Shown here piece after piece: positions 3,606 to 62,365 of a stretch of DNA of 64,000 nt. The position numbers and the translations under genes were made by a program. A model generated the notes under the pieces. The model was not told where the DNA came from and made no database searches. It saw only the letters and a program-made list of their open reading frames with translations. Within the stretch, counting starts at the first letter, position 1; each line of letters begins with the position of its first letter. Source of the DNA: Terebella lapidaria (taxonomy: Eukaryota; Annelida; Polychaeta; Terebellida; Terebellidae); the NCBI GenBank assembly GCA_949152475.1, contig OX424561.1, positions 20,268,481-20,332,480 on the forward strand. The letters are read 5' to 3'.

Positions 3606-6600
3606 ATGGCGGTAAGAGCAATGTTTTTCTCGTGTCAAAAATATGTTTTTATTTATATCTAGGAGTAGGATCTAGAATTAGATCTAGATTCGTACAAGAT
3701 AATTGTGTATGAAAAAAGATTTGTATATTCTTTGCAGAAAGCGACAACGATTAAAGAGGCTCTCGCAAAATGGGTGAGTAGAAAGTCAACGTCGAACTAG
3801 GGGGGGGGGGTGGGCCTAGAGTAATCCAGCCTATTTTCGGACACCACCAGAAATCGGACACTTCATGATTTACCACCAATTTTCTATGTCAGTTATTATG
3901 TCGCAAATAAATTCTCTCAAGCACTGAACCGAGTCAAGTGTCTGGTCTTTTGCTGGTTTAAAGAAATGTCTGCGAAGTGTTAGCAGAGGTATCTAGAGTA
4001 CAGCTGTAAACCATACAGTTTTCGGACACTTAAGGTTGTTCGAAACACCCGGAAAGGTGTTTTTATTGAGTAAAAAGTTATATTTCTTGATAGCTAGATA
4101 TGTGATGGTTACAAAAAGCAGAAAAAAATAGTATGTCACCGTATGATATTTTTTGCTATGATGCATTTTGTTGACCTCCTATCAGTCTTGAAAGTACCTC
4201 AGCAATAGCCACAATCCATTACATCATGACATGCAATCTAACTGCATATTTTTGCCTAAAACTATATATTTATAGGATTTTTCAGTACATAACTATTGTA
4301 TATGCAACGGTTCATTAAACTGATGAAACAAAATTCGCTAGCACTGAGTTTGATATGTTTCGTGGCAAGAGTAAGAACATGTGTATATATTTCAGCACTG
4401 AAATTTTACAGAAAAAGAGTAACTTCTGATAATCCATACAACGTTGAGTATCACTGCTCGGTCAGTAATACAGTATTTTTTTCAAATTTTTTTACACATA
4501 TTTCTTCAATGATATTTTGGGTTTGTAAAAATAATGTAAAAAATATACCTATCCAGGTTACTTTTCGCGATATAAGCGTTAAAACATGAAAAGTGTCATT
4601 TTATGGAAACAAAAAATCAATAATTTCATGAATTTGGAGTGCATACGATGTCAAATTATTCAAGTTTTTGTGAGTATGAATTGAAAAAAAAATCATATAT
4701 TTCATATATTGTATGTTCTGATTTGACTCAGAAATGTATAAAAGGCTGTCATGGTAGATGTGATCATTAGCATGAACGGTATGGCTGCTAGAATGAACCA
4801 CTAGATGTTGACTGGTCAATTGGCTCAGATGAGATTCTCTCCGGTCGCCAACTCAGTAGGCCTAATAGTTGAAATATCCCCATCAAATTTGACAAGTCAG
4901 TAGAACTTTAGGAATAAATTTCACCCAATTAGCTTGAGCAAGATGACCGCCACATTTGGCACATGATTTTGCGATAACTTGTAGGCCTATACATACGGAC
5001 AACGTAAGGATATAGCTTATTATATATAAATGGCTGATAACGGATTTGACTGAGAGGGTAGCGCTGATCTGTGCGCGGTGAATTTTGGAGATTATTTCGT
5101 CTATAGGTCTATTTCATGCATCTCGATGAATTTTGGCAGAAAATCGCCTAACATAGTGTAAATTTCTGGGCTGATAACAGTGATAAGCTGCGGAAACAAA
5201 AAAGTTAGCCCCATTCGGCTTACATAGCGGAACGGGTATGGTAGACGAAACGTGTCAAAAATGACAACTGTAACGAAAACGGAGCCCCGCGAAATAGAGC
5301 CTGGTGGGCTGTAAATGTTGCGGCCCAATGAAGCTGAGCTCTTCTTATGATGTATTCCTCTTAAAAAGTGAACATTTGGTATATTCAGGCTATATAATGG
5401 ACAGGCTATAGAGGAATTGATGTATGTCAATGGAATGTTGCTTAGTGGAACTGGAAATGCATATGCGTGTTTGGACAAACTTAGGGGCGCATAGGACAAA
5501 CTATTATAAAAGAGTGTGTGACGACCTCTGGATATTTTGTGGTGAACTTTGAAGTTCTAAGAGATTGGAATTGTGAAGAAAACACTCCACAGGGGCACAA
5601 AATGCAGGATTCGGCGGATGGGAGGATGTGGTAAGAAACGGAAGAAACCCTCACACTTGTTTTATTGGTCTTACACAGATATCATATACAAAGTAATGAG
5701 CGCCACTTGCGCCAGCAACTCTCCCCCCCCCCCCCCCCCCCCACCCCTCAAATTTGCTCTTGCATTCGTTGTATCTTTTGTCCTTGGTCCACTCAAGTCA
5801 AGTAGCAACAAATTCCATGTGTTATGCCATACTAGTACATTCATGCTTATTAGCCCTACGAGATCTGCAATACCATGAATAGTCTTTCAAAATATTATTA
5901 TCGCTAAGCTTGAGTTGTATTGAAAATTATGCCATGATCCACAGAAGTGTTGTCAATTTATTTAACAGTGTTTTGAATAATTTTACGATCCATTTGATTA
6001 TGTTAATCAGAAGATTTGGAAATTGTTAGGTCTACTAGTTTTGTTGTGCAAACGTTTACTCATATACATATTAAAACTATGTAACGAATGGATGTTCTAG
6101 TAGTATTATCTTATTAACCGAGGCTGGCCCACTGAAAGATACTAGACATATGATGTGATGCTTCCAGTACTTTGTGTGTTCAAGTCGAGACTCCGCCGTA
6201 CTGATTACAGACCGCCGGATTTTCCAGTACTCCCATTGCACGGCAACATTCATACCCCGCCGATCCCTATTTCACCCCGCCGTTACATTCGCTGTTTATG
6301 ACACGATTGGTCAACCATAGACGGGCCACATTGATGACGCGTTCGGTGTATCGAACAACCGTAAAGATAATTCGGACAAAACAAAAATTTCGTCAGAAAT
6401 TTTTCAAACTTCGTCAGTTTATGCATGAAGTAGTACTGGGATAGTAGGTGGAAAAAAATATATATGTCACCGAACTAGTTTTCGAGTTATGATAGCGTTT
6501 TAAACATGTGTTTTGTATTAATTTTATAATGGGAGTGAATGGGAAAATGCAAATTTTGATCATTATTAATGCAAGAGAAAAAAATCCAGTCGTCAGATTT

Positions 6601-9600
6601 CACTGATTTTTTTATATGATTTACATCTTTGAAAAATACACGTGTAAAGAAAATAAAAAATATAGGTCACCGAATTAATTTCTGAGATATTGACAATTTA
6701 TTGGTGAAAAATGAACCAATTAGCCCCATTTTGGCGGGAAATTTCTTGTGACCGCCAGGAATACGTCTTTACGTTTTTTCGCAATCATGGTGAGTAATCG
6801 ATGTCCCGGAGGAAACAGTACATATTTCCATTGATTTCACGATATTATGGCAGCAGTCACATCATTGTCAACGACTACAACAAAATAATATTAATTTTAA
6901 AGTGATATTGGCAGTAAGTTATACATTTTTCCATAACTTTCTGATTGAACGAAGAAAACATAACAGTTATATATCTGCACTCGTATGCTCAAACAGATGC
7001 CCCTTTCTAATCGATTTCGTTGTGAGTTTCTGGTGGAGATATTTTGAGTTTGTTTACATTATCGCCATTCTCGGTGCTTTGTACCCCTTTGCTGCAGTGC
7101 GATTCCAGCTTACTCGTATATGTTCGAGCCAATCGAGCGTGAAGTAGGTTGAGTCAGAGGTAACTCTGAGTGGCGCATAAAACAAAATAAAAGCGGCTGC
7201 TAGTACTGTCATATGCTTGAATTATCGATCTGATCGAGCATAGTTTGTTTTGTAACCTATTTTTCTGAGACCACAGGCATATATGTAATTGATTTAGAAA
7301 AAATAGTTTTCCTGCCAACATCACTTTAATTCTAAACGAATCTCTGTGTCATGTCATATTAATTAACAACGCAAATTTCTGTGATAGTTAGAAACCAAGG
7401 TAGATTTTCATCTACAAGTGCAATCATTGACTTGAATTTCTGGAGTGTGGGCCTACATACACTTTTTCAGGCTCGGATGTCCGAACACATGTGTACTTTT
7501 TACACCCCAGGTTATGATAGTATGCGGGTGTCAGAACTTTTGTGATCATCAGAACTATTATGCCTACGTCAGCACCAGATATCTTGTTTTTGGTTCAAAT
7601 TAGGACAAAATAGGCCCATATGGTTAAGAGTGTTTGGGTCGGAGCATCGGCTCACTATCTGCTATTGAAAATGTATCAGTGTTTCGTTTGGGTTATTATT
7701 GAATTATCTGTTTATCTGAATTATCAGATTATCTGGATCTGTTTATCCCTTAATTCGTGACTCTATTTGCTGGAATTCCGTTATATATATTATTACAGTG
7801 CTAGTATATATTACTAGCTGAACTCCGTGGCAAGCACACTCCCCAATCTCAAGGGCCGCAAATCATCACGGCACGCATCTCGAAACGGATAGCCTAACAT
7901 GCCGCCTGGTGCTCTCACTATGAGGTTCGTTTCGGTATAAGCCTTCAGTTTATACCCATAGGTAAAAGCCTACAGTTTATACTCATGGGCCTAGTTTGTC
8001 AGGACAATATTGTTTGAATGCGAGCGTTACTTGCATAGATAGGCCAACGACAAAGTCACGGGCTCTCACACCAGCGACAGTTAGATTCATATAGCTCAGC
8101 AAAATAGTGGCAATCAAAAATGTACACGACAAAACTTATAGACTCTGGTTTTGCTCCAGACGTGGATTGTGTAATGCTTAAGTGATTATGGTGACGCCGT
8201 TAACATGCTCAAATGACTACGGTGACTACCGTCACCGTGCTCCTCATCACCGTGACTAGGCCTACACCACGCAGTATTATTCACTTAGAAATCTGTATAT
8301 TTATTTTACGGCATAGCCTACATTAGGCCGGGCTTTTCAGTTTGTTAGATTACTGGTTACTATACGTGATCATTTTATGCCACTTTCTGACGTCATGACG
8401 TTTTGATATAGCCGTAATATCGTTCGCTGGGTGGCGCCTGTGGGCCCTGTCCGAATTATCTTTAAGGGGAAATCTCAATAATGACTGTACAGAAAAATAC
8501 CAGATGATTTATTTTACATGCAACGGCATATGCACGTAAATGTGGTAAAAGTTAAAAAGTCGTATGGAGATATCATTTTGTCCTGACTTCGATATTGGTG
8601 AATTATGAACTGTGAGTTCAAGTGACGGTAATCGGACACCCCAGACAGAAATCGGACACCTTCTGTGTCTTTAAGAATAATAACTATACAGGTAGGGGAC
8701 TAAATATCGAACAGCACCAAATGTCGAACACAATTTTTAATTAAGGCATTTCGGCAGAAATGCCTTTATGGTTTTAGATCTAGCAGATTTTTTTTTTCTT
8801 CTTCTTCCGCCACTTTTGGTTTCCAGACGATAACTTTAGATTGCCTTGACGGATCCTCGTCAAATTTTCACCACAAGTCAGAAATGATATGTGGAAGAAC
8901 CCTATTCTTTTTGAGACGGATCCGAGGTCCGTGAGGTCCGTGAGGATGAAATCAAGGCTAATTTTGAGACTTGGTTTCCGGACGATAACTGGAAAAATAT
9001 GTACGCAATAGTTGCAGAACTCTGCATGGAGGTTCATATGCCACCAGGGAAGAACCCTATTGATTTTGGGATCGATCCGTCAAACGACCTTTGACCTAGA
9101 GGTCGAAATAATTTTTTGCTGATTCATCCTTGAGGCTTCCTGCATATCTCAGAAACCGTGCATCGTAGAGCGAAACGGACGTTATTTTCGGACTCGTCGC
9201 CCTAGACAAACATCTCTAAGGGGTATTATGGATGAACTTTGACCTTGACCCGAAATTTTTTTGCCGAGTCGGCATTTTTCGTTTTCGTCAATATCTCGGA
9301 AACGGTGTGTCGTAGAGCGAAACGGACGTTATTTTCGGACTCGTCGCACTAGACAAACATGTCTAAGGGGTATTATGGATGAACTTTGACCTTGACCCGA
9401 AATTTTTTCGCCGAGTCGGCATTTTCGTTTTCATGGATATCTCGGAAACGGTGAGCTGTAGAGCGAAACGGACGTTATTTTCGGACTCGTCGCCCTAGAC
9501 AAACATCTCTAATGGGTATTATTGATGAACTTTGACCTTGACCCGAAATTTTTTTGCCGAGTCGGCATATTTCGGTTTCGTCGATATCTGGGAAACGGTG

Positions 9601-12600
9601 CCTCGTAGAGCGAAACAGACGTTATTTTCGGACTCGTCGCCCTAGACAAACATGTCTAAAGGGTATTATAAATGAACTTCGACTTTGACCCGAAATTTTT
9701 TGCCGAGTCAGGATTTTTCATTTTCGTCGATATCTCGGAAACGGTGCGTCGTAGAGCGAAACGGACCGTATTTTCGGACTCGTCGCCCTGGACAAACATG
9801 TGTAAGGAGTTTTATTGATGAATTTTGACCTTGACCTGAAATTTTTTTGCCGAGTCGGCATTTTTCGTTTTCGTCGATATCTTGGAAACGGTGCGTGTGT
9901 AAGGGGTATTATTGATGAATTTTGACCTTGACCTGAAATTTTTTTGCCGAGTCGGCATTTTTCGTTTTCGTCGATATCTTGGAAACGGTGCGTCGTAGAG
10001 CGAAACGGACGTTATTTTCGGACTCGTCGCCCTAGACAAACATGTCTGAGGGGTATTATTGATGAACTTTGACCTTGACTCGAAATTTTTTTGCCGAGAC
10101 GGCATTTTTCGTTTTCGTCGATATCTTGGAAATGGTGCCTTGTAGATCGAAACGGACGTTATTTTCGGACTTGTCGCCCTAGACAAACATGTCTAATGGG
10201 TATTATGGATGAACTTTGACCTTGACCTTAAATTTTTTTGCCGAGTCGGCATTTTTCATTTTTCGTCCATATCTAGGAAACGATGTGTCGTAGAGCCCAT
10301 GGCAAACATGTTTTAAATATTAAGAATTCGTCCTAACACCGAAATGCCTCCAAGGCATCTTTAGGCCTTGACGTCTAGTTTTAGCAGTACTCAAAAAGCA
10401 TCAAATTAAATGAAAATTTTATGAGTAAGATTTGATTATATCTCACATTTGTATGCTCATGTGCCATAAGTTGTGATTTACGCTCATTATTTTCTGAGCA
10501 CTGACAACATTAAAAACTGTGTTCGACATTTGGTGTTGTTCGACATTTAGTCCTCTACCTGTATCATTATAATTTTAGGCTATATACATGAAGCTGTCAA
10601 TTGGTAGTTGTTGCAAGGCTAAAGATCAGTGATGAAAGAAAATTAAGCACCCCTGAGGACAGGAAGATCATATATAGTACACTAGACAGTTTTCGGACAC
10701 TAACACTAACAGGGAAGCTAACATTGTTTAACTTATCAAACTAGATACCTCTGCTAACACTTCGCAGAAATTTCTTCAAACCAACAAAGACCACAGACAC
10801 TTGGCTCGTTTCAGTGCTTGAGAAGATTTGTTTGCGACATAATAACTGACATAGAAAATTGGTGGTAAATCATGAAGTGTCCGATCTCTGGTGGTGTCCG
10901 AAAATAGGCTGGGTTACTCTAGTTCGATAATTTCCACAATGTTAGCTTCCCTGTTAGTGTTAGTGTCCGAAAACTGTCTAGTGTACTCTATATGATCTTC
11001 CTGTCCTCAGGGCTGCTTAATTTTCTTTCATAACTGATCTTTAGCCTTGCCACAACTACCGATTGACAGCTTCATGTATATAGCCTAAAATTATAATGAA
11101 ATAGATCTAGTTATTATTCTTAAAGACACAGAAGGTGTCCGATTTCTGTCTGGTTTGTCCGATTACTGTCACTTGAACTCACAGTTCATAATTCACCAAT
11201 ATCGGAGTCAGGACAAAATAATATTTCCATACGACTTTATTTAAGGCATGACAACACCAATGATATTGCGTCATATCCGTTACAGTCAGAGAATTCCCTA
11301 TTTTGAAAACGGGGGATGCCCTTGATCCCCCGCAGAATGGTGGGGGATATTTTGCTATGGCTGGTTGTTGACCCAGGCTGGTTGGCATTGCACACGAAGA
11401 GTTTCAAGACCACGGCACGCACAGAACGGCTCTGATGGCGAACGATATATATGGGTTGTCAGGCATGAAAATCAGTCGTTTTAAGGGGGTACCCTCAGAA
11501 TTCGAGCTGTAGCAAAAAATCCAATTTATCAACATATATTTTCCTTACTATAGTGAGATCAGGAAATGAATTGGCTATCTTTGTATATAAGCTGCTAAGG
11601 TTTATCTTGTTCTGGGACGGAGCTATGGAGACTTGAATTTGGGCTTTTTATCATTGTTTTGTATGGCCGAAGGAATTAGTGAAATCTGTCCTGAAGGAAA
11701 TACATGTATTCTATAATTTCTACTCTAGATTGAAGTTAACGTTGATGTTGCGTTCCCTTATAATGGTTTTGGTGCAAAAAGATTAAAATTGGCCTTTCCT
11801 CTGTGTTTTTGATGTATTTTTTTACAGAAACCGTGAATTTGGTGAAAATGCGTGATTTTGCAAAACAAAGAGGGCCCTCCCAAGAAATTGCTTCCCATGG
11901 CATGCATATATATGGCTTATTTGTGCCTAAGAGATGCTGTTTTCAATCGGCAAAACAAGAAAATCTCTCAGAATATATGTGTTTATTTTATACATCACCA
12001 ATCTAAACTACTACATGCTCCTTTTCGATCCTTTGGATCGTTCTGGATAGAAATTCGCGTACTGAAAGCAAGGCACGATCGTCTGCCTGCATGACTCGAG
12101 CGCTCCTTTTGCCGCCAAAACCGCCGCGCATATGCGCGCGCAGCTGCGCAGAAGCTTCACTTTTCTGTCCACCGCCATTTTTGCTTGGCAGCTTTGGATT
12201 TTGGTTCCCGGTGAATTCGTAGAATTTAGTCTGCAAACTAGACTTTTGCGATATATTCTTACGGAATTTCACCTGCCACGTTCATAGACATCGTTTTGTG
12301 TCTATTTGGATAAGTATCGGTCGATAGTTTGTTACTTGCTAGATCGTCAGCGATTTGTATAGCCAGTTCACCCTATTATCGTCCATCCGTCGTACTTGAT
12401 AGTGTACTTGTTGTGTACATCTATCAATAGTTCTACGTTAATTTTCTACTGTATATATTGTGTATACGTATACTGTAGTTATATATTCGTAGTCCTCTTA
12501 GGGTTCTTTTTTCAGCGCGGTCTCAGGTTTGCATATTTTGCCCGCCCTGTTACTGTGTGTGGTTAGTTCCCTTGTGTGATCATGACTTCACAATCCTCCC

Positions 12601-15600
12601 TTGGTACCGGTGCCATGGACGAACGTCCATGCCCGAAGTGTCTGGTCAATACCCTCCGAGGAGGGGAGAAACACAGTGTGTGTTTCGACTGTTTAGACCA
12701 TGGCCCGGTATCTATGGAGGATTTGAGGTGTGATCTGTGTCGTTTCTGGCGTCCCTCTTCCTTCGTGCAGGCGACTGCAAAGTATTCCGAAGCCTCGTTG
12801 GCTCGTCGGGATGCTTTGAGGCTTGCGGAAGCTTCGGCTCCGCAAGTCCGCCAGTCGCCCATGGAGGTGGAGACTCCGCCTGTGACGGCACAGATTGCGT
12901 CCGGTGTTAGCCAGCCCCTGGGGCTAACACAGGACATGGTCAACGCGGCTGTGCAATCTTTCTTTGCACAGTCGTTATCGTCCCTTCAGGGTCCCCTCCT
13001 GCCGGGTCTCTCTTCCCTGCTTGGACAGGGAGTCCCGGCCGGTTCTTCGGCTGCCCCTTCGTCGCAGGGAGAGCTTGCTCCCCCTGCTGGCAAGAAGTCG
13101 AAATCTTCTAAGAAGAAGGTTTCAGTTCTTGCCAAGGCGAAAGCAGCCAAGGAACCGCACTCCACCTTCGTCGTCCCTCAGGGGCCGATCGAGGTGGAGG
13201 GGTCCGTAGTCTCTTCCCCCGGGCCTTCCAAGAAGAGGAAGCGTGCTTCCTCTAAGCGCCGTGGTGCTGAGACCACATCGATTTTCGATGTGGCTCAGGC
13301 TTCGTCCGACCTCTCGGTGGGCGACGATCAGGCTTCGGGCTTCGATCGGCGGGGCAGCTTGGATGGCTCATTCGGGTCCTCGGTCTCGAGGTTCGAGGGG
13401 GGAGAGTTCCCCTTGTTTGGGGGTGAGGCTCTCGATCGTTCGTGCGATCGGGAGTCTTCACTTGGCGGTCGTGCTCCTGGTCCTCGATCAGGGCACGATC
13501 GGGCGGGTGGTGCTGGGGTCGTTCCTCAGGGCCACTCAAGTCCTGTGTACGCGGATGTAAGTCGCCGGACGGGCGCGATCGCTGAGCAGGCATTCCCTCG
13601 CCCGTCCTTTGATGTACCCTTGGGGTCATCGAGGTCTTCGATCGGACCTGTGAGGTCCAACGATCGGGGGGGTCGAGTGGAAGCTGATCAGGAGTCGTCC
13701 TCCTCGGAGGATGAGACTTCCGATCAGGCCGGGGGTTCTAACTTCCGGTGGGCTTTGGAGTCGGTCGCAAGGCGAATGGACTTGCCGATCGATGCTCCAG
13801 GGCCCTCACGGGGAACCGGTAGGTTCGCGTCGGCGCCAGTTCGTCGGCCGATCCGGCTCCCTGTGGCTCCCGCGTTGGTCAAGTCCTTCGACAAGATCAA
13901 CAAGGGAGTTATGGCTAAGAAGGATGTGGCTCGTACGGAGTCGACATTCCCGACCAGCCGTGTTCGACCTGAGTCGATCGACACCTATCGGACTGTAGAG
14001 TCCGAGGGTGGACATCAGACTTCCGTCCCGGTCGAAGACCCTAACCTTCACCTGCTTTCCCGGAAGCAGGGTACGGTCTGGTCAGCTTATGTGAAAAAGG
14101 CTCGCCTTTCTCACTGGCAGACGCTGTCTCATCAATTGATGGGGCAGCTCTCGTTGACAGATCACCTGACCACCTTGGTGCAGGAGTTTGTGGACGAGGC
14201 GGATCTGGAGGAGGGGAGTCGCGCCAACATTCATGCAGCACTCGGCGTCTTGGCCGGAGTGGTCCATGCTGCTGAGCGTGACAGTGCGCACCTGGGCGCA
14301 CAATTGGATCTCACCATGCGTGATGCCGATCTCCGTCTGCTTGACGTGTCCGCTACGGACGTCGCTGAGCTACGTGGGAGGCCGCTGTTCTCAGGCTATA
14401 CCTACGCCAACCTCTCTCGATCGGATATTTCCGTCATGCGGGAACATCTCCGGGATGAGGCTATGGCCAAGGCTTTGCTTGGGAAGTCGGCGGGGTCTGG
14501 GACAGGCAAGAAGACCAAGGGTCAGAAGCCTGCCCAGCCTCAGGCACCACATGCACCCGCTTCTACGCAGCCGCCCTTTCGTGGGGCGCAGCCTCCTCCT
14601 CCCCGGGGGGATGGCAAGCGCGGAGGCAAAGGGGGTGAACGCTTCAAGGGCAAAGGGAAAGCTTCTGGTAAGAAGTGACTCGTTGCGGGAAAGCGTAGGC
14701 TCTGTGGAAGGTTCAGTTCTGTCGGAATTCGATCTTCCACAACCTGGTCCAGTCGGGGGACGCCTGGCTCAGTTCGTCCAGAACTGGAGCGATCTGGCGT
14801 CGTCAGACAATTCAGTCGTGGCATGGGTGAAGTTCGGTCTCACCTTCAGATGGGAGGCTGGAAAACCACCGATCAGACCCAAAGCGTGGTTCTTCCCTGT
14901 GCCCGGCGATCGGGAAAAGTTTCAGCTTCTGCAGCACGAGGTGCAGCAGTTGCTAGAGAAACGTGCGATCGAGGTGGTCAAGGACGAGAGAGGATTCTAT
15001 TCTCTCATCTTTCTAGTGCCGAAAAAGACAGGCGGGTGGCGTCCCGTTTTCGATCTGTCAAACCTCAACAAATTCCTGATCATACCCAGGTTCAAGATGG
15101 AGTCGGCGCTTTCCGTCCAGAAAGCTCTGTCCAAGGGGAAGTGGGCAGTCAGTATCGACGTCAAGGACGCGTACTTACATGTGCCAATACACCCAGCCGA
15201 TCGGCGATACCTCAAGTTCGCCTTCGAAGGTTCGGTGTATCAGTTCAGGGTACTTCCTTTTGGAGTAGCCACCGCCCCTTACGTGTTCACCCGTATCGTA
15301 AGGACGATGGCAGCCAGGTTTCGATCGGTCGGAATTCAATTCCACCATTATATCGACGATTGGTTAATCATAGCCGACTCCCCGTCTCAGGCTATAGAGC
15401 AATCCGGGTTCGTCCTCAGGTTGGCGACCAGCCTCGGCTGGATCCCCAATTGGGCGAAGTCTCATCTGTCCCCGACACAGAGGTTCGAGTATGTCGGGGT
15501 AGATTACGATCTAGAGCGAGGAGTAGCTCTTCCTCCGCGGAAGAGAGTTCTCAAGGCGATTGCGGCGATGGAGGTCGCGCTGACCCAGTCGTCGATCACA

Positions 15601-18600
15601 GCTCGACAGTTTCTGTCCATCATCGGTCTGTTGGCGTCGATGGAGAAACAGGTACCGTTCGGCAGGTGCTTCCTCAGACCCATTCAATGGTGTCTAGCGT
15701 TGCAATGGCGGATCCTCACCGATCGACTAGACCAAGTCGTATCGGTGGACGATCGTGCTCGGGAAGCAATGCATTGGTGGCGGGACCATCGGAATCTTTT
15801 CCGAGGGATGCCACTCGCGGAGTATCTGCCCGATCGGACCTTCTTCACCGATGCGTCAGAATTGGCTTGGGGAGCTCATATGGACGAGCACGAACTCTCG
15901 GCTGTGTGGAACACGAGCGAGAGGGCGTTGCACATCAATGTCCTAGAGCTGCGAGCGGTGAGACGTGCGTTCGAGATCTGGGGGCCTCAGAGTCCCCCAG
16001 GGACGAAGTGGTTGGTCTTCACAGACAACAGCACAGTAGTGGCGCACATAAACAAACAAGGTGGAACTCGGTCGAGTCAGCTTTGTTTGGAGGCCGAGTG
16101 TCTGATCAGGTTTGCCTTCAAGTACCGTCTGTTTATCAGGGCGAGGCACCTGCCGGGTCACAGGAATGTCCTAGCGGACGCTCTGTCGAGACCGGACAAG
16201 ATCATAGGCACGGAGTGGAGTCTGCATCCGGGGGTGTTTCGGCGCGTTTGTCAGGCGTTCGGGACACCGAACATAGACCTGTTCGCAACCTCTCGGAATC
16301 ACAAGCTCCCGGTCTACTTCTCACCTCTGCCAGAGAGCGAGGCACTGGCTGTGGACGCGATGTCTCAGTCGTGGGACGGGATGTTCGGGTATGCGTACCC
16401 GCCAACTCGGTTCCTAACAGAAGTGCTGCACAAAGTAGCCAGGTCTCAGTGCGAGATTCTGTTGGTGGCGCCATGCTGGCCGATGCAGGCGTGGTTCCCT
16501 CTGCTACTGTCCCTCCTGATCGATGTACCACGTGTTCTCCCGATCGAGGACAGGTTGCTGAAGCAACCGGGGCGGGATATATTTCACGATTCCGTCCACG
16601 TGCTCAAATTACACGTCTGGAGGCTATCGAGCGATCCTTCCAGGAGGCAGGATTTTCTCAGCAGGTGTCCATACATCTCGCGAGAAAGAATAGGAGATCC
16701 TCCTCTAAAACGTATGAGGCTAAATGGAGAGTATTCGTACGTTGGTGTAACGGAAGGCGCATTGATCCGCTCTCTGCCCCTCTGAATGCAGTGCTAGACT
16801 TTCTCTGCTATCTCTTTGATAGGCTTAATTTGAAGCCTACTACGATCGAGGGATACAGGTCCATGCTGGGCCCTGTATTCCGTGCTAGGGGGATCGATTT
16901 AACTAATAATCGTATCCTTGCTGATCTCTTGGCGTCCTTTAGGACGCAAAGGCCACGTGGAGTTCCTACTCTACCGGATTGGGACATGGCTTTTGTGCTA
17001 TATTGTCTTACTAAAGCACCTTGGGAGCCTCTCAAGGAAGTTTCCTTGCAGAGGTTAACTCTTAAGACTTTCCTGCTAGTTATGCTAGCAAGTGGTCGAA
17101 GACGCTCAGATGTCGCGGCGATCGACGTATCGCGAGTCGCATTTGGCGCGGATGGGTCCGTTTCCTTATACCCAGTACGTGATTTTATGCCTAAAACACG
17201 TGCTGCAGTTGAGGGCGGGAAAGCGTTCTCCCCTATCGTAATTCCGTCACTGGGCGGTTACGTAGGACGGAATGAACCGGACGCTCTATTGTGTCCGGTA
17301 AGAGCGCTGAAAATCTACATCGATCGTACCAGATCGATCAGGAAAGATCGCAAGCGATTATTTATTTCCTATCAGCCTAACAGGGCTACGGATATCTCCA
17401 CAGCTACACTATCCCGATGGGTGAAGGTTGTAGTGAGGACTGTCTATGCGGAATCAGGTGCTGACGATCGAGTCACTTACAAAATATCGTCCCACCAAAT
17501 CCGACACATCTCGATGTCTTTGGCGGCCAGGTCGAATATTCCGTTGGAATATATCGTGAGGGCTGGAATGTGGACTAATTCTACGACATTCATCGGGTTC
17601 TATCTGTCCAATGCTGCCGAACTTCAGGACCAGTCGTCCAGATTTAGACTGGGTCCGCTGGTCGTAGCGCAAGCTGTTGTTTGAACCAGCTGGACAGAAA
17701 AGTCTTGGTTTTAATGTGCACGTGTATATAAGCAACACTTTGTGTTTGTGTTTGAGTTTCTTTTGTTACGGTCTCAAGTAGAGTTCCGTTTTCCACCGAT
17801 GGGTGAAGAAGAAATTCGTGCATGTCGGAGGCAAGCGATCGCACCGCTAGGTGAGTATCTTTATTATATTACTAAAGATATATCGAAAATGTAGCATTTT
17901 AGCGATTCGCTTGAAATCAAGACTATCGTCTGTTTTCATGACTCTCTAGCACTACTGCTCCACCGCCTATCCTTTGATTCTAAGGAGCATGTAGTAGTTT
18001 AGATTGGTGATGTATAAAATAAACTTCCCAAATTTTAATTGTAAATTTGCCGTTTATTGTTATTACTCACCTCTAAACTACTACAGTAAAGGCCCTCCCA
18101 TCCATCCCCGCCAGTTGTGTGCTAGGGGCTTCCTTTTGTCGTTTTTTGGACAGAAAAGTGAAGCTTCTGCGCAGCTGCGCGCGCATATGCGCGGCGGTTT
18201 TGGCGGCAAAAGGAGCGCTCGAGTCATGCAGGCAGACGATCGTGCCTTGCTTTCAGTACGCGAATTTCTATCCAGAACGATCCAAAGGATCGAAAAGGAG
18301 CATGTAGTAGTTTAGAGGTGAGTAATAACAATAAACGGCAAATTTACAATTAAAATTTGGGAAGTTATTGATATAAACACCGTTTTTGAGAAAAAAATGC
18401 ATATTTGAATTTTCGGCCGAACTAACAGAATTCCAGTTTAGCAGCTCAACTCCCGATGTTATGTTACTAAATCCCATAAAAGTTAATTATATATCATATT
18501 TTTGAAGATTTGATACCAGATTGATGATGATTTGCTTATTTTTGCTTGTGTAGCTGACCCTTTCATGTCATTTCGGTCCAATATTTGGGATGTAATTAAT

Positions 18601-21600
18601 ATTTGTAATTCCATGTGGCGCACATAATTCGTGGTTCTTTACAACAAAACTGCATCCTGGCTCTTAAGTACCTCAACCACTGTAGTATATGATAACATTA
18701 GCACCTGACACCAAAATTTGTAGCATCCACGATGAAATAACGTATTGATGGGCCAATTCCTTTTTTACGTTTTTACAATGGAACGAAGTCAGTTATTGGC
18801 TCATAAATCCAAAGTGATATAACTTGCACCCTTGAAACTTTGTACACATGTTATCTAGATCATAATCTATCACGATTTATTATCAGATGGTAGTGACACC
18901 AGGATCGCCTACTATTCAGGCATGACAACACCAATGATATTGCGTCATATCCGTTACAGTCAGAGAATTCCCTATTTTGAAAACGGGGGATGCCTTTGAT
19001 CCCCCGCAGAATGGTGGGGGATATTTTGCTATGGCTGGTTGTTGACCCAGGCTGGTTGGCATTGCACACGAAGAGTTTCAAGACCACGGCACGCACAGAA
19101 CGGCTCTGATGGCGAACGATATATATGGGTTGTCAGGCATGAAAATCAGTCGTTTTAAGGGGGTACCCTCAGAATTCGAGCTGTAGCAAAAAATCCAATT
19201 TATCAACATATATTTTCCTTACTATAGTGAGATCAGGAAATGAATTGGCTATCTTTGTATATAAGCTGCTAAGGTTTATCTTGTTCTGGGACGGAGCTAT
19301 GGAGACTTGAATTTGGGCTTTTTATCATTGTTTTGTATGGCCGAAGGAATTAGTGAAATCTGTCCTTAACTTTTACCACATTTACGTGCATATGCCGTTG
19401 CATGTAAAATAAATCATCTGGTATTTTTCTCTATAGTCATTATTGAGATTTCACCTTACGTGTCCGAAAACTATATGGATTACTCTACGTACACTTTTTA
19501 GGAAGAGCAGGGCTCTTCCTCTATGATGTTGGTTTTTTTTGGATTTTTGAATTTTTTCTTTTGTTTACATTCTTGAAAGTGCCACTTGGAACCACAACAG
19601 GCTATTCAACTGTGGCTAATTGGGAGGGCCCGGGGCCCGTTGGGAGGAAAATGACGCCCGTGTACCTAATCATGGTTAATGTAATAAGTTATTAGCGATA
19701 ATAATCCCAGGAGACGTGTGTTCCGACCGTTTTTGTTTATTTTATACATCACCAATCTAAACTACTACATGCTCCTTTTCGATCCTTTGGATCGTTCTGG
19801 ATAGAAATTCGCGTACTGAAAGCAAGGCACGATCGTCTGCCTGCATGACTCGAGCGCTCCTTTTGCCGCCAAAACCGCCGCGCATATGCGCGCGCAGCTG
19901 CGCAGAAGCTTCACTTTTCTGTCCACCGCCATTTTTGCTTGGCAGCTTTGGATTTTGGTTCCCGGTGAATTCGTAGAATTTAGTCTGCAAACTAGACTTT
20001 TGCGATATATTCTTACGGAATTTCACCTGCCACGTTCATAGACATCGTTTTGTGTCTATTTGGATAAGTATCGGTCGATAGTTTGTTACTTGCTAGATCG
20101 TCAGCGATTTGTATAGCCAGTTCACCCTATTATCGTCCATCCGTCGTACTTGATAGTGTACTTGTTGTTTACATCTATCAATAGTTCTACGTTAATTTTC
20201 TACTGTATATATTGTGTATACGTATACTGTAGTTTATATATTCGTAGTCCTCTTAGGGTTCTTTTTTCAGCGCGGTCTCAGGTTTGCATATATTGCCCGC
20301 CCTGTTACTGTGTGTGGTTAGTTCCCTTGTGTGATCATGACTTCACAATCCTCCCTTGGTACCGGTGCCATGGACGAACGTCCATGCCCGAAGTGTCTGG
20401 TCAATACCCTCCGAGGAGGGGAGAAACACAGTGTGTGTTTCGACTGCTTAGACCATGGCCCGGTATCTATGGAGGATTTGAGGTGTGATCTGTGTCGTTT
20501 CTGGCGTCCCTCTTCCTTCGTGCAGGCGACTGCAAAGTATTCCGAAGCCTCGTTGGCTCGTCGGGATGCTTTGAGGCTTGCGGAAGCTTCGGCTCCGCAA
20601 GTCCGCCAGTCGCCCATGGAGGTGGAGACTCCGCCTGTGACGGCACAGATTGCGTCCGGTGTTAGCCAGCCCCTGGGGCTAACACAGGACATGGTCAACG
20701 CGGCTGTGCAATCTTTCTTTGCACAGTCGTTATCGTCCTTTCAGGGTCCCCTCCTGCCGGGTCTCTCTTCCCTGCTTGGACAGGGAGTCCCGGCCGGTTC
20801 TTCGGCTGCCCCTTCGTCGCAGGGAGAGCTTGCTCCCCCTGCTGGCAAGAAGTCGAAATCTTCTAAGAAGAAGGTTTCAGTTCTTGCCAAGGCGAAAGCA
20901 GCCAAGGAACCGCACTCCACCTTCGTCGTCCCTCAGTCGGGGCCGATCGAGGTGGAGGGGTCCGTAGTCTCTTCCCCGGGGCCTTCCAAGAAGAGGAAGC
21001 GTGCTTCCTCTAAGCGCCGTGGTGCTGAGACCACATCGATTTTCGATGTGGCTCAGGCTTCGTCCGACCTCTCGGTGGGCGACGATCAGGCTTCGGGCTT
21101 CGATCGGCGGGGCAGCTTGGATGGCTCGTTCGGGTCCTCGGTCTCGAGGCTCGAGGGGGGAGAGTTCCCTTTGTTTGGGGGTGAGGCTCTCGATCGTTCG
21201 TGCGATCGGGAGTCTTCACTTGGCGGTCGTGCTCCTGGTCCTCGATCAGGGCACGATCGGGCGGGTGGTGCTGGGGTCGTTCCTCAGGGCCACTCAAGTC
21301 CTGTGTACGCGGATGTAAGTCGCCGGACGGGCGCGATCGCTGAGCAGGCATTCCCTCGCCCGTCCTTTGATGTACCCTTGGGGTCATCGAGGTCTTCGAT
21401 CGGACCTGTGAGGTCCAACGATCGGGGGGGTCGAGTGGAAGCTGATCAGGAGTCGTCCTCCTCGGAGGATGAGACTTCCGATCAGGCCGGGGGTTCTAAC
21501 TTCCGGTGGGCTTTGGAGTCGGTCGCAAGGCGAATGGACTTGCCGATCGATGCTCCAGGGCCCTCACGGGGAACCGGTAGGTTCGCGTCGGCGCCAGTTC

Positions 21601-27600: not shown

Positions 27601-30600
27601 AAGGAAATCATCAGGAAAAAAAACGATAGTTTTATGAGGTCATGACATTGTGATCTTTCTCAAACTTGAAAATACTGGTAATTACTGACGAAACAAATAA
27701 TATGTGTCAAAGATCAATGTCTGGCGTTTACGTGTTACAAATTGCTTCAGTGAGTATCATTCAAATTTTGCTATATATTTGGACGGGTCGGGTCAGACGA
27801 CACAGGTACCCGGTTCGGAAATTTCCGACTCACTCGGGCCCTAAAAAGTTCTATCCAGTCATGACTAACCGAATAGGTTATCATTAGTTTTACTAGTTAA
27901 GTCTATTATTGACCACAATAAAAATAGTTACATGACAAGAAAATAGTTACATGACAAATTTATTGGCCCAACAAGGTATAGATTCTGCCCAGTAGAGTTA
28001 CAATATGGCCACAACATATATGTACCAAATCAAATACAATATTCAAGGGTTTTTAAATAGTTCTGTGCAAACATTTTCGAAGCTCTTCCTTTGAGGCCAG
28101 TGGCCCTTGTTCAAATTTTTTTTTTCGATAGATCTAATCGTAGACGTAGCCTTCCCTTCCCCTCCCCCCCCCCCCCCCCCCCCACAAAAAAAACTTGAAA
28201 TTTTGTGTGTCTTAATTGAGTATCATGCCGCAATTTTTCACCAAATTTCGGAAACCATGCTAGACTACTGCCTGCCTATACCCACCTTGACGGTTCTCAA
28301 TCTTCCGCACTCGAAAAAATTAGCTCGTGCGACGTTGTGGGACATCGAAAACTAAATGCGTATCCAGTCAGAAAATGGAACGTAACAATTGGGCACTGAC
28401 ATGAAGTATAAGCGTGAGAAGTGAGCAATGGCCGGTTGACTGAATGCACACATAGTTATGTATTTATTCTCAAATTCAGCCGACACGCTAATGAATGTTC
28501 ATGTAAATTGGCGATACAATAAATTACTCCCTTCGACGAAAATATTCGTCAGAATATATTATTTAACTGAATTATTTACGCCAACCTCCGTAGAACACAC
28601 GTTCAAAGTATTTTCACTTCGAAACCAGGTTTTTCCCCCAGTCGAATTAGGGCCCGGACGAGCCGACGGGTACCCGAACTCGGGGCGGGTCATACAATTA
28701 CCTGGGTCAGAATTCCATTACCCGTACCCGAGAACGAATAAAGATATTGTTTCTGTCTTGAAAATTTGCGATAAACACTAGTAAAATCACAAGGATGACA
28801 AGAAAATCATCGGGAAAAATCGGAAGGAGTTTTTTGAGGTCATGTGATCTCTTGCAAACTTGAAAATAAACACCAATAAAACAAATGATATATGTGTCAA
28901 AGATCGATGACTTGCGTTTACTTGTTGTAAATTGCTCCAGGGATTCCCGTTCAAATATGATCTATATTTGGACGGGTTACCCGGGGTGGGTCGGGTCAGA
29001 CCAGACGGGTACCCGGGTCGGAAATTTCCGACTTGTCCGGGCCCTAAGTCGAATAGTATTTCCCCCATGGGAATCTCAGAGAGGGTTTAAGAAATCTCCC
29101 CGCTGCCACAATTTTTCACCAAATTCCAGAATTTTACCTCTAGATTGAAACCTCTAGAAATGAAATTACACTGCCATGTGCATTTTCTGAGACGATTTTG
29201 GTACTTTCAGCTAATTGCAATACTGGTATAGAAATTGTCCAAAACATTGAAATATACTAGAATCCATGAAATCAATAGATGTTACCGGTAATTCAAATAT
29301 ATGGTATATATCAATATTACTGTAATGTGTTGAGATTTATGATGTTTTTCAGGAGGAAAAAAACAGCAAAGAGGATAAAAAAGTGAAAGCGTCAGAATCA
29401 ACAGATGTGCAGCTGTATGCACAGTACCCTCCTGTTGAAAAAATGGATGCCTCATTGTCAACACTCACATGCTGCGAGTATGTTCTCTTGTTCCATGTGT
29501 CATCTCTGGTTCATGTATCTTTCATCCAGATATGTAGTGATTACTAATTCTTTGTACAGTAAGAATTTGTATAATAGAAACTGCACTAGAACCTGTATCT
29601 ACATGTATATCTGTCTTCCAGGAGGCTGTCGTTGTCAACCAATTGCATTGAAAAAATTGCTAATCTTAATGGCTTGAGTAAGTATGAAATGTATTATCAT
29701 GATTCTTCTTTTTAGGTTACCGGACCTTTGGTCCGATAACCTATTGCCGTGGCGTTGCGTCCGTCGTCCGTCGTCGTCGTCCGTCGTCGTCCGTCGTCGT
29801 CCGTCTACATTTTTATCTTTAAAGTTTACGATCGAATCTTTCTGAAATTTTGCACAAAAATGCCTAAAAATATTTCGAGAGGGAGGTATTTTTTAGTTTT
29901 TTGATTTTCGCAATTATTTCAAAATGGCGGCCGTTTTCGTCGAAAAATGGCCAATTTTGGACTTTGGCTGTCGTTTTCTCAAAATCTGTTCAGTAACTTT
30001 TTCTCTTATTCATGCATAACACTCCTCATATGTACCCATTTTGGGCCCAAACTCGGCCCAAATGGGACTTTCCCATGTTAAATTCTCCTATGCTTTATAA
30101 TGGGACACATTAAGCCTAATATCTCACTTAATATTGAGATTAGAGACTAGGAATCAATTGTGGACATATAGGAAATGATATATGCTGAATATTGTCGTGA
30201 CCTTGAATTTGACCTTTGACCTCATTTTCAAGGTCACAGGACAAAATGGCTAATATCTCGCTTATTATCGACTTTACAGCTTAGGATTCAATTGTGAACA
30301 TATAGGAAATGATATATGCTGAATTTTCTCGTGACCTCGAATTTGACCTTGACCTCATTTTCAAGGTCACATGACAAAATGGCTAATATCTCGCTTATTA
30401 TCGACTTTACAGCTTAGGAATCAATTGTGAACATATAGGAAATGATATATGCTGAATATTTTTGTGACCTTGAATTTGACCTTTGACCTCATTTTCAAGG
30501 TCACAGGACAAAATGGCCAATATCTTGCTTATTAGTGACTTTATGCCTTATGAATCAATTGTGAACATATAGGAAATGATATATGCTGAATATTCTAGTG

Positions 30601-51337: not shown

Positions 51338-52736
51338 AGGTTACCGGACCTATGGTCCGTTAACCTATTGGCATGGCGTTGCGTCCGTCGTCCATCGTCG
51401 TCGTCGTCGTCGTCCACATTTTTATCTTTTTTGTTTACGGGCGAATTTTTCTGAAATTTTGAACAAAAATACTTTAAAATAATTCAAGAAGGAGGTAATA
51501 TTTAGTTTTTTTATTTTCGCATTTTTTTTTCAAAAAGGCGGCCGTTTTCGACGAAAAATGCCTGATTTTGGACTTTGGCGGCCATTTTCTCAAATCTGTT
51601 CAGTAACTTTTTTTTCTTTTTGATACATAACACTCCTCATATGTACTCCTATGATGTCTATAAATTTCGTTGCGCTCGAATCGCTCGAAGTGGGCCATTC
51701 TGGCCCAAACTCGGCCCAAATGGGACTTTCCCATGTTAAATTCTCCTATACTTTAAAATGGAACACATTTTGCCTAATATATCACTTAAAATTGAGATTA
51801 GAGACTAGGAATCAATTGTGGACATATAGGAAATGATATATGCTGTATATTCTCGTGACCTTGAATTTGACGTCTGACCTCAGTTTCAAGGTCAGAGCAC
51901 AAAATGGCCAATATCTTGCTTATTATCGACTCTACAGCTTAGGAATCAATTGTGGACATATAGGAAATGATATGTGCTGAATATTCTGATGGCCTTGAAT
52001 TTGACCTTTGACTCCATTTTCAAGGTCATAGTACAAAATGGCTTATATCTCGCTTATTATCGACTCTACAGCTTAGGAATCAATTGTGGACATATAAGAA
52101 ATGATATATACAGAATATTCTGATGACCTTAAATTTAACCTTTGACCCCATTTTCAAGGTCATAGGACAAAATGGCTAATATCTCGCTTGTTGTCGACTT
52201 TACAGCTTAGGAATCAGTTATGAACTTATAGGAAATGATATGTGCAAATTATTGTCATGACCTTGAATTTTACCTTTGACCTCATTTTCAAGGTCACAGG
52301 ACAAAATGGCTAATATCTCACTTATTATCGATTTTACAGCTCAGGAATCAATTGTGGACATATAGGAAATGATATTGCTGAATATTCTCGTGACCTTGAA
52401 TTTGACCTCTGACCTCATTTTCAAGGTCCAAGGACAAACTGGCTCATATATTGCTTCTCTTTTGTCTGTATGGCTTGGGAATCAATTGTGGACATATAGA
52501 AAATTATATACAATGTACACTGAATATTTTGATGACCTTGAATTTGACCTTTGCTTTCATTTTCAAGGCCACAGCACAAAATTGCTAATATCTCTCTGAT
52601 TATTGAATTTACAGCTTAGCAATCAACTGTGGACATGATATATGCTTGATATTATATATGCTGAATATTCTCTTGACCTTGAATTTAACCAGTGACCTGG
52701 CTAACATCTATAATATTAAACATTGTACGGTAACCT
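51338..52736 (+). mobile_element. Helitron-like (HINE) element
   Basis: It opens after a T-run with AGGTTACCGGACCTATGGTCC and GTTAACC, the 5' hairpin. The TCGTCGTCG microsatellite and about seven core repeats of ~135 bp follow, matching those in DNAL1 intron 4. It ends with the subterminal GTACGGTAACCT (52725-52736). No 3' hairpin follows; another 5' end abuts directly. Confidence 0.65.
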
Positions 52737-57304: not shown

Positions 57305-57638
57305 TCGTGGCCTCGTGGACTCGCCTTAGTATATATGCGAGGCCACGAAGCGAGGCTGCGAGGCCACGAAGCGAGGCCGCGAGGCCACGAAGCGAGGCCA
57401 CGAGGCCACGAAGCGAGTCCACGAGGCCACGAAGCGAGTCCACGAGGCCACGAAGCGAGGCCACGAAGCGAGTCCACGAGGCCACGAAGCGAGGCCGCGA
57501 GGCCACGAAGCGAGTCCACGAGGCCACGAAGCGAGTCCACGAGGCCACGAAGCGAGGCCACGAAGCAAGTCCACGAGGCCACGAAGCGAGGGCACGAAGC
57601 GAGGCTACGAGGCCACGAAGCGAGGGCACGAAGCGAGT
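57305..57638. repeat. Left minisatellite arm of foldback element A
   Basis: GC-rich 15-21-bp units built from GAGGCCACGAAGCGAG and GAGTCCAC. Inverted relative to 58560-58915. Confidence 0.9.
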
Positions 57639-58559
57639 CCAAGATGATACAAAACAAAACCCAAAACCCTGTCACAAAACATTTGTCCATACAGACTCAT
57701 GCAGGAAATTGTGAGTGGCATTCCCTCAACATGGATAAAAAGAAATTTACTTTTTATGTGTGAATAATTATTAGGGAATTCCGTTTAATGTGACTGAACT
57801 AAACTTAATATTTCTTTTAAAGTCATACAAATGCAGGGGTTTGCATCGTCTTGAAAGCTGACCAGTAACTTGAGGAGTTTTCTAATTGCTATTATTCATC
57901 ACAGCTAACACTTTTTGTTCTTGGCACCCAGAGGATCGAATAACAAAAGAACTTATATTGGAGGATGTAAATATGCCAGTCCTGAAAAAAAGGTACATAA
58001 ATTATATTATAATAAACTGATTGGTTGCTGGAAACTTTACGAATCACACATTCACACAGTTTTCCAAATATGTCATTCAGTCATCATCAGATACGAAGAG
58101 ATTATAGGTCACACCGATTGGAAAGAGCATTGTCGGTGTCATTGAACCTGACTTCGAGTACAGATAAGTTTTAGGTTCAAACGTGGTGTGTTGTAGTTGT
58201 GGTTTATATATTTCACAAATCATTTTTTGTTAGCTTATAGTCAATATGTAGTCTAATGTAAGTGATATATAGACTGAAAAATAGACCTAGATGCCATAGA
58301 AAAGTGTACATTTAATACGATCGTCTACATATATTTACGATCTTATCCAGTACCGAAAACGTCTTGATAACAGATATACAAACGCTTTGCATATACACAT
58401 ATGAAATGTCGGTAGTTGTGGTAGCTGTCTTTGATACATATTTGTAGTATATTATTGATATAAACAAGTACCGTTCGGCATTTTTCAGATGAAGAAAGAT
58501 CACTGAATATTGTTGCGAATGCGTTATGATTCCTCATGGGTTCATGCGTGAGCTTGCTC

Positions 58560-58915
58560 CGTGGCCTTGTGAACTTCTTTCGTTGCCTCGCTTCGTGGCC
58601 TCGTGGACTCGCTTCGTGGCCTCGCCTTAGTTCATATGCGAGGCCACGAAGCGAGGCAACGAGGCCACGAAGCGAGTGAAGACACAGACTCGCTTCGTGG
58701 CCTCGTGGACTCGCTTCGTGGCCTCGCGGCCTCGCTTCGTGGCCTCGCAGCCTCGCTTCGTGGCCTCGCGGACTCGCTTCGTGGCCTCGTTGCCTCGCTT
58801 CGTGGTCTCGCTTCGTGGCCTCGCAGCCTCGCTTCGTGGCCTCGCGGCCTCGCTTCGTGGCCTCGCAGCCTCGCTTCGTGGCCTCGCATATATACTAAGG
58901 CGAGGCCACGAGGCC
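58560..58915. repeat. Right minisatellite arm of foldback element A
   Basis: Complementary units CTCGCTTCGTGGCCTCG with variants. A short internal inversion occurs at 58637-58690, where the units briefly read in the opposite sense. Confidence 0.9.
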
Positions 58916-61864: not shown

Positions 61865-62095
61865 TATCTCGTACGTACGACTTACTAACTCGTATCTACG
61901 ACTTATTAAGTCATATGTATGACTTATTAAGTCGTATGTACAACTTATTAAGTCATACGTATGACTTATTAAGTCATACGTACGACTTACTTACTCGTAC
62001 GTACGACTTACTAACTCGTACGTACGACTTATTAACTCGTACGTACGAGTTAATAAGTCGTACATATGACATATAAGTCATACGTACGAGATACA
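61865..62095. repeat. CGTACG-rich minisatellite, first block
   Basis: About a dozen ~20-bp units joining GACTTATTAA or GACTTACTAA with CGTACGTA. Nearly every unit is itself palindromic. Confidence 0.9.
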
Positions 62096-62164
62096 TTTTT
62101 TTGCACACTTGATAACAATACGTTTCACTACGGAAGCGTATTGCTATCAAGTGTGTAAAATTTC

Positions 62165-62365
62165 TTATCACTTAATAACTCATATGTATGACTTAGTATC
62201 TCATAAGTACGACTTACTAACTCGTACGTATGAGTTAATAAGTCGTACGTACGGGTTAATAAGTCATACGTAGGAGTTAATAAGTCGTATGTACGAGTTA
62301 ATATGTCGTACGTACGAGATACTAAGTCGTACGTACGGGTTAACAAGTCATACGTACGAGTTAAG
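62165..62365. repeat. CGTACG-rich minisatellite, second block
   Basis: About ten ~20-bp units of GAGTTAATAAGTCGTACGTA and variants. A shorter third block lies at about 63080-63170. Confidence 0.9.

What the first reader, a model, noticed from the sequence alone, without database searches (positions are those of the whole stretch)
8463..19453. Nested palindrome: a ~1-kb foldback split by two different insertions
Pairing the two arms base by base shows that 8689-10561 interrupts the left arm and 11245-19366 the right arm. Each intact arm serves as the pre-insertion reference for the other, so relative ages can be ordered: palindrome first, then the TIR/satellite element and the direct-repeat element, then DIRS copy 1.
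Basis: seen in the sequence. Interest (0 to 1): 0.7.

Follow-up and report, generated by a model that had tools for sequence, protein, structure and literature searches.

The report
Transposon inserted backwards in its twin
What looks like a one-kilobase DNA palindrome is one small jumping element that landed, back to front, inside another copy of itself, with six more jumping elements later stacked into the pair: an ordinary but unusually readable fossil stack, one layer of which belongs to a family that also forms long tandem arrays.

Summary
The inverted arms are real, far beyond chance, and the two reported insertions are exact to about a base. The 'palindrome' is not a foldback element. 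It is two copies, A and B, of a common ~610-bp non-autonomous DNA transposon (imperfect 26-bp inverted ends, TA flanks). A is inserted in reverse orientation at a TA inside B. The 'loop' is the 3' third of A. The missing pieces of B (3819-3993) and A (3996-4033) lie 4.4 kb to the left, so the stack runs 3817-19487 and no deletion has to be assumed. A is also split at TTAA by two elements (4034-6360, 6365-8461). The 'TIR/satellite element' is itself nested: a TA-flanked MITE holding a HINE-like element with 147-bp repeats. The 'direct-repeat element' is TRIM-like (TTAA flanks here) and holds a DIRS-type retrotransposon at a GTT. None of ten other copy-bearing loci examined has arm-loop-arm order, and no other match returned spans the arm/loop junction. 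The most interesting part is the TRIM-like family: 720 exact repeat starts, solo repeats, tandem arrays of ~1,290-bp units over at least ~56 kb, and rarer base-exact joins of internal units without the repeat.

The parts
3817..19487 (.). whole nested stack, from the left TA (3817-3818) to the right TA (19486-19487) of MITE B
3819..3993 (-). MITE B, 3' part (the part of B missing from the reported palindrome)
   Evidence: consensus 436-616 matches 3996-3817, 95%, E 3e-78
3994..3995 (.). TA target duplication of A in B, left copy (right copy 10920-10921)
3996..4033 (+). MITE A, 5' terminal inverted repeat, ending in TTAA 4030-4033
   Evidence: consensus 8-38 matches 4006-4036, 100%
3999..4008 (.). 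TACAGCTGTA in A where the family has TA: possible footprint of an excised CAG...CTG element
   Evidence: sequence; interpretation is inference
4034..6360 (+). element X1, 2,327 bp, TIR GGTTGTTCGAAACACC/GGTTGTTCGATACACC, TTAA left and GTAA right
   Evidence: of 40 listed genome matches (360 candidates) 17 begin exactly at the TTAA, 22 up to 8 bases before it, one is the window itself; right end by TIR only
6365..8461 (+). element X2, 2,097 bp, TIR AGATAATTCGGACA, GTAA left and TTAA (8462-8465) right
   Evidence: of 40 listed matches (216 candidates) 39 stop at query 305-313 = window 8465-8473, one is the window itself; left end by TIR only
8466..8688 (+). MITE A, second piece (reported left arm), ending in TA 8687-8688
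8689..10561 (+). MITE C with its insert; TIR CAGGTAGGGGACTAAATATCGAAC..., TA on both sides (8687-8688, 10562-10563)
   Evidence: the MITE A/B family consensus is the empty site
8741..10380 (+). HINE-like (Helentron) element with 147-bp tandem repeats, between T and T of MITE C (8741-10378 or 8743-10380)
   Evidence: none of 42 other match rows covers the outer 34 bp of MITE C; empty site read in one locus, L004
10564..10919 (+). MITE A, 3' part; includes the reported loop 10746-10917
   Evidence: consensus 251-616 matches 10556-10921, 97%
10922..11244 (-). MITE B, middle part (reported right arm), ending in TTAA 11241-11244
   Evidence: consensus 124-440 matches 11240-10918, 96%
11245..19365 (+). 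TRIM-like element L-I-L with its DIRS insert; TTAA on both sides (11241-11244, 19366-19369)
11245..11691 (+). L, left 447-bp direct repeat
   Evidence: 1 mismatch in 447 to the right copy
11981..18366 (+). DIRS copy 1 between two GTT
   Evidence: reverse transcriptase match and a weak tyrosine-recombinase match; inverted and internal complementary repeats; site without insert in six other copies of I
18919..19365 (+). L, right 447-bp direct repeat
19366..19485 (-). MITE B, 5' part with its terminal inverted repeat; TA 19486-19487 follows
   Evidence: consensus 3-124 matches 19488-19367, 97%

Best explanation
A non-autonomous DNA transposon (MITE B) inserted at a TA. A second copy of the same family (MITE A) then inserted, reversed, at a TA inside B; that alone makes an inverted repeat of about 410 bp with the rest of A as the loop. 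Further insertions: X2 into a TTAA of A and X1 into the TTAA beside X2 (the order of these two is inferred); MITE C into a TA of A, then a HINE-like rolling-circle element into C; a TRIM-like element into B, then a DIRS-type retrotransposon into the TRIM-like element. Each layer was moved by enzymes of its own class (inferred from target sites and termini, not shown). No function of the palindrome is needed.
For: Family copies are ~610 bp, TA-flanked and not palindromic: 13 of 14 copies read have TA on both sides; the 14th (L003, the same locus as L022) has a changed 3' end. All pieces of A and B are present and collinear: B = 3819-3993 + 10922-11240 + 19370-19485, A = 3996-4033 + 8466-8686 + 10564-10919. 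Both A/B junctions carry an A terminus next to TA. The A/B right junction matched end to end only here. The sequences left of 8466 and right of 4033 are separate repeats whose other copies stop at or within a few bases of the TTAA. Empty sites: C in the family consensus, HINE in L004, DIRS in six other copies of I. Ages are compatible: A differs from the consensus at 17 of 584 aligned positions and B at 10 of 435 (left-hand pieces not included), the two L repeats at 1 of 447; the two DIRS copies are 99.2% alike.
Against: A and B are about equally diverged from the consensus, so sequence does not confirm that B is older; only the nesting does. The site between X1 and X2 reads GTAA, not TTAA, so one change must be assumed, and that junction rests on the inverted ends alone. 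A's left terminus carries eight extra bases (4001-4008). Beside the TRIM-like element, B has two bases more than the family consensus. The consensus rests on 14 copies, two of them (L028) inside one local duplication. The genome searches scored only the best 40 candidates each. No allele or relative without the insertions could be examined.
Confidence: 0.96

Rival explanations
1. A true foldback (long inverted repeat) transposon of about 1 kb, of which the 610-bp copies are deletion products.
For: Arms and loop are continuous in the window once the inserts are set aside; one other locus (L025) also has inverted copies.
Against: Copies end at TA with terminal inverted repeats at ~610 bp; the arm-loop junction was found nowhere else (40 of 172 candidates scored); the remaining part of B and the 5' end of A lie to the left exactly where insertion of A into B predicts them. 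L025 has the opposite geometry, two whole copies 5'-to-5'.
Confidence: 0.02
2. Inverted duplication by a replication or repair error (template switch, hairpin) of a single MITE copy.
For: Would also give arms of one family.
Against: The breakpoints would have to fall on the transposon termini next to TA on both sides. The arms differ at 3-6% of positions while A and B each differ by 2-3% from the consensus, as expected of two separate copies.
Confidence: 0.02

Closest known systems
Nested and self-inserted DNA transposons / MITEs (self-insertions: PMC4744444; nested insertions: PMC3903597; both seen only as search listings with the start of the abstract)
   Same: One element inside another copy of its own family, relative order read from the nesting
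   Different: Nothing in kind; here it mimics a foldback element, and eight elements are stacked
biv-TRIM of bivalves (PMC6934838, passages read)
   Same: Direct terminal repeats round an internal part, solo repeats, tandem arrays TDRx_I(x-1) (longest locus 16,618 bp), no clear tRNA primer site
   Different: biv-TRIM has 202-218 bp repeats and a 77-80 bp inner part; here 447 and 844 bp, ends GG...CC, and some I-I joins without a repeat between. No sequence comparison was possible.
Cassandra tandem arrays in plants (PMC7215508, passages read)
   Same: LTR-I-LTR-I arrays attributed to recombination or template switching
   Different: Plant, 5S-derived repeats; the longest array in the passages read is 13 LTRs, about 6 kb, by a PCR method
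Helenus TRIMs of animals (PMC10886601, abstract and first part of Results read)
   Same: Non-autonomous LTR element with 4-bp target duplications in animals
   Different: Helenus has tRNA-like LTRs with A and B boxes; in L and I no B-box consensus match on either strand, though L has two A-box-like matches
Cg_HINE of the Pacific oyster and DINE-1/HINE (PMC7492417, PMC4067079, passages read)
   Same: Subterminal inverted repeats, central tandem repeats mostly of 140-180 bp, 3' palindrome, T-rich target without duplication
   Different: No difference seen in what was compared
DIRS retrotransposons (features recalled)
   Same: Reverse transcriptase, weak tyrosine-recombinase signal, inverted terminal repeats with an internal complementary region, no target duplication
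   Different: Not examined in detail; no Pfam match in the first open frame

Membership tests
Foldback element | genomic copies have long inverted arms round a loop | tested here: not met
   0 of 10 distinct loci; junction found only here
TA-target (Tc1/mariner-type) MITE, copies A and B | TA target duplication and terminal inverted repeats | tested here: met
   13 of 14 copies with TA on both sides; imperfect 26-bp TIR
TA-target (Tc1/mariner-type) MITE, copies A and B | autonomous partner with a transposase sharing the TIR | not tested
   no search made
TTAA-target elements (X1, X2) | TTAA target duplication and TIR | tested here: met
   outer ends by family copies, inner ends by TIR only; the shared middle site reads GTAA
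HINE (Helentron) | subterminal inverted repeats, 3' palindrome, insertion at T|T without duplication | tested here: met
   GGCATTTCGG / CCGAAATGCC and an AAGGC...GCCTT stem read by eye; empty site in one locus, L004
HINE (Helentron) | autonomous Helentron partner | not tested
   no search made
TRIM (short non-autonomous LTR retrotransposon) | direct terminal repeats, fixed-length target duplication, solo repeats | tested here: met
   22 of 26 insertions with both ends read have identical 4-bp flanks (8 of 9, 14 of 17; 3 partial repeats dropped); solo repeats
TRIM (short non-autonomous LTR retrotransposon) | LTR ends TG...CA | tested here: not met
   GGCATGACA...AAATCTGTCC; the TG/CA rule is recalled
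TRIM (short non-autonomous LTR retrotransposon) | primer-binding site and polypurine tract | tested here: inconclusive
   I begins TGAAGGAAAT and ends GCCTACTATTCA, neither typical by eye; no tRNA set was compared
TRIM (short non-autonomous LTR retrotransposon) | whole element under 1 kb | tested here: not met
   447 + 844 + 447 bp; size limit as stated in PMC6934838
Retrozyme | hammerhead ribozyme in the repeats | tested here: not met
   no Rfam match at gathering score in the window; at E up to 5 in 8400-19600 one sub-threshold snoRNA hit only; here I is split by the DIRS insert and was scanned in two parts
DIRS | reverse transcriptase | tested here: met
   PF00078 E 2.8e-23
DIRS | tyrosine recombinase | tested here: inconclusive
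   PF00589 E 3.3e-4, 20.9 bits, below its cut-off of 27.1
DIRS | inverted terminal repeats, internal complementary region, no target duplication | tested here: met

The most novel reading that the evidence does not exclude
The L-I family is a retroelement whose cDNA is joined into multimers before it integrates. The joins seen are L-I-L-I-L and L-I-I-I-L. In the latter, I units meet base-exactly at TTCA|TGAA, which, if the element is LTR-like, are the two points where reverse transcription is primed, and the whole stands between one 4-bp target duplication (L031). Integrated multimers would then seed satellite arrays of 50 kb and more, so that one unit is at once a mobile element and a satellite monomer.
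Probability: 0.2. Interest if true: 0.55.

Novelty: new member of a known kind. Interest (0 to 1): 0.3.

Why it matters
It shows how easily self-insertion of a MITE passes for a foldback element, and gives one locus at which eight elements with five kinds of target site can largely be ordered against each other. The TRIM-like family links dispersed insertions and long tandem arrays in one genome, which makes the origin of such arrays testable.

Tried and rejected
Foldback element: rejected. My own intermediate reading, that the missing ends of A and B had been deleted at 8463 (note), was dropped when the left-hand pieces were found. One single TIR/satellite element at 8689-10561: replaced by MITE C plus a HINE-like insert. 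Retrozyme: no ribozyme match and no CTGANGA motif in L or I on either strand. Pol III promoter: no B-box match in L or I, although L has two A-box-like matches. L as a DNA transposon inserted in arrays of I: the flanks TTCA and TGAA are not a direct duplication, and L has no inverted ends beyond 2 bp, so disfavoured, not excluded. Sequence relation of L-I to biv-TRIM or Helenus: not testable here. Literature searches bearing on MITE self-insertion in inverted orientation gave listings on self-insertion and nesting in general; I read none of those papers.
Full report
Observation. The inverted arms are present as described and score 210 and 155 bits, against at most 35.6 in 20 windows shuffled by two-base blocks, a rough control. 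The window lies in an unnamed 762-Mb genome, G000:C7:20268481-20332480.

What the arms are. The other genomic copies examined are not palindromic. Of 10 distinct loci tested for self-complementarity (12 entries, two of them repeats of the same locus), only L025 has a long inverted match involving the element, and there two complete copies face each other 5'-to-5' about 100 bp apart. The family is a ~610-bp element between TA dinucleotides, with imperfect 26-bp inverted ends (GAGTAAACCATACAGTTTTCGGACAC / GAGTAATCCAGCCTATTTTCGGACAC). TA stands on both sides in 13 of 14 copies read (L003 and L022 are one locus, counted once; two of the 14 lie in one local duplication, L028). A search with 106 bases across the arm/loop junction returned 77 pieces (40 of 172 candidates scored); only the window itself matched end to end.

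Where the rest is. Searching the window with the 14-copy consensus places both copies in full. Copy B, minus strand: consensus 436-616 at 3996-3817, 124-440 at 11240-10918, 3-124 at 19488-19367. Copy A, plus strand: 8-38 at 4006-4036, 32-258 at 8462-8688, 251-616 at 10556-10921. B is cut at consensus ~436-440 (AACTAGATACC) and A stands in the cut, reversed, with TA at both junctions (3994-3995 and 10920-10921). This is a MITE inserted into another copy of its own family. The arms are A and B, the loop is the 3' third of A, and no deletion has to be assumed.

Later layers. (1) A is cut at TTAA. Left of 8466 lies a repeat whose other copies stop there (39 of 40 listed matches end at query 305-313, window 8465-8473; the other is the window; 216 candidates). 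Right of 4033 lies another whose copies start there (17 of 40 listed exactly at the TTAA, 22 up to 8 bases before it, one the window; 360 candidates). Their other ends meet at 6361-6364 (GTAA); that junction is read from the inverted ends alone. Their longest stop-to-stop frames are 151 and 117 codons. (2) A is cut at TA by element C (8689-10561); the family consensus is the empty site. (3) C holds a HINE-like element: none of the 42 other match rows covers the outer 34 bases of C (41 begin at query 35-52, one at 215; 40 of 1,816 candidates scored), and L004 shows C without the insert at that point. It has the subterminal repeats GGCATTTCGG/CCGAAATGCC, 147-bp repeats and a T|T target, as described for HINE (PMC4067079, PMC7492417, passages read). 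(4) B is cut by the direct-repeat element (TTAA on both sides). (5) That element holds DIRS copy 1 between two GTT; six other copies of the internal part read across the point without it (L009-L012, L014, L016). Its frames match reverse transcriptase (E 2.8e-23) and, below the curated cut-off, phage integrase (E 3.3e-4); the first frame has no match. Copies 1 and 2 of DIRS in the window are 99.2% alike.

Order. Fixed by nesting: B before A; A before X1, X2 and C; C before HINE; B before TRIM; TRIM before DIRS. Not fixed by nesting: C, X1/X2 and TRIM against each other, and A against TRIM. Divergence from the consensus is 17 of 584 positions for A and 10 of 435 for B (left-hand pieces not included); the two L repeats differ at 1 of 447, which makes the TRIM-like insertion look younger than A. 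X1 after X2 is an inference from the reading that X1 took the TTAA beside X2.

The direct-repeat family. L is 447 bp (GGCATGACA...TCTGTCC), I is 844 bp (TGAA...TTCA). An exact 26-base L start occurs 720 times and an exact 24-base L-to-I junction 533 times in the genome (only the first 100 places of each are listed). Forms read: solo L, L-I-L, L-I-L-I-L and longer, and two loci with adjacent I units (L031 L-I-I-I-L, L037 L-I-I-L). The loci are not a random sample: L009-L018 are top-scoring matches, L029-L048 come from the listing for C1. Of 26 insertions with both ends read, 22 have identical 4-bp flanks: 8 of 9 (the window included; L013 not) and 14 of 17 (L038 and L044 not; L029 has a 5-bp match instead). 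Dropped: three loci with only part of L (L033, L036, L042); the arrays L009 and L010, not read at both ends, are not counted. L-start positions, mostly at ~1,290-bp steps with some of ~2,130, cover C1:44.731-44.772 and C1:58.616-58.672 Mb. In the first of these arrays (L009) some I units are joined with L and four more bases missing (TTCA|GGAAATAC). Base-exact joins TTCA|TGAA occur 35 times, 9 of them on C6:26.43-26.52 and 9 on C17:5.89-6.00 Mb. In L031 the three I units differ by 0 or 1 of 843 and the two L by 3 of 447; in L037 both pairs are much more diverged, with many gaps. The near-identity in L031 fits joining before insertion but equally growth afterwards. Solo repeats and tandem forms are published for biv-TRIM and ta-TRIM (PMC6934838, PMC4558846, passages read) and arrays for Cassandra (PMC7215508, passages read). 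I did not meet I-I joins in those passages, but did not search for them specifically.

Against my reading. The TRIM label fails two of its usual marks (TG...CA ends, size) and a third is open (primer sites). The 4-bp flank rule fails in 4 of 26. The tyrosine-recombinase match of the DIRS copy is below its cut-off. The left half of the stack rests on the assembly being right over 15.7 kb of repeats.

Verdict.

Noticed in passing
window 3999-4008: TACAGCTGTA in MITE A where the family has TA; reads like the footprint (CAG + CTG between two TA) of an excised CAG...CTG element such as MITE C.
   Followed up: partly
G000 C1:58.616-58.672 Mb, C1:44.731-44.777 Mb, C2:3.931-3.956 Mb, C6:26.43-26.52 Mb, C17:5.89-6.00 Mb: Clusters of the L-I (TRIM-like) unit; ~1,290-bp arrays on C1 and C2, with scattered ~2,130-bp steps where an L is missing. 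On C6 and C17 only I-I joins were listed.
   Followed up: partly
window 19735 to about 26130: Second DIRS copy, 99.2% identical to copy 1, just right of the stack.
   Followed up: partly
L028 (C23:330000-339999): Two copies of the MITE about 6.25 kb apart with the same flanking sequence: a local duplication.
   Followed up: no
L004 (C13:34844365-34847590): MITE A-type copy inserted in a MITE C-type copy, the reverse nesting of the window, which suggests that both families were active in overlapping periods.
   Followed up: partly
window 30116-31142 and 51806-52698: Arrays of what looks like the same 134-bp repeat, perhaps the centres of further HINE-like elements.
   Followed up: no
window 57337-57641 and 58556-58888; 61869-62364 and 63082-63170: Pairs of 21-bp tandem arrays whose units look like reverse complements of each other, about 1 kb apart: possibly repeat-bearing inverted ends of two more elements.
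   Followed up: no
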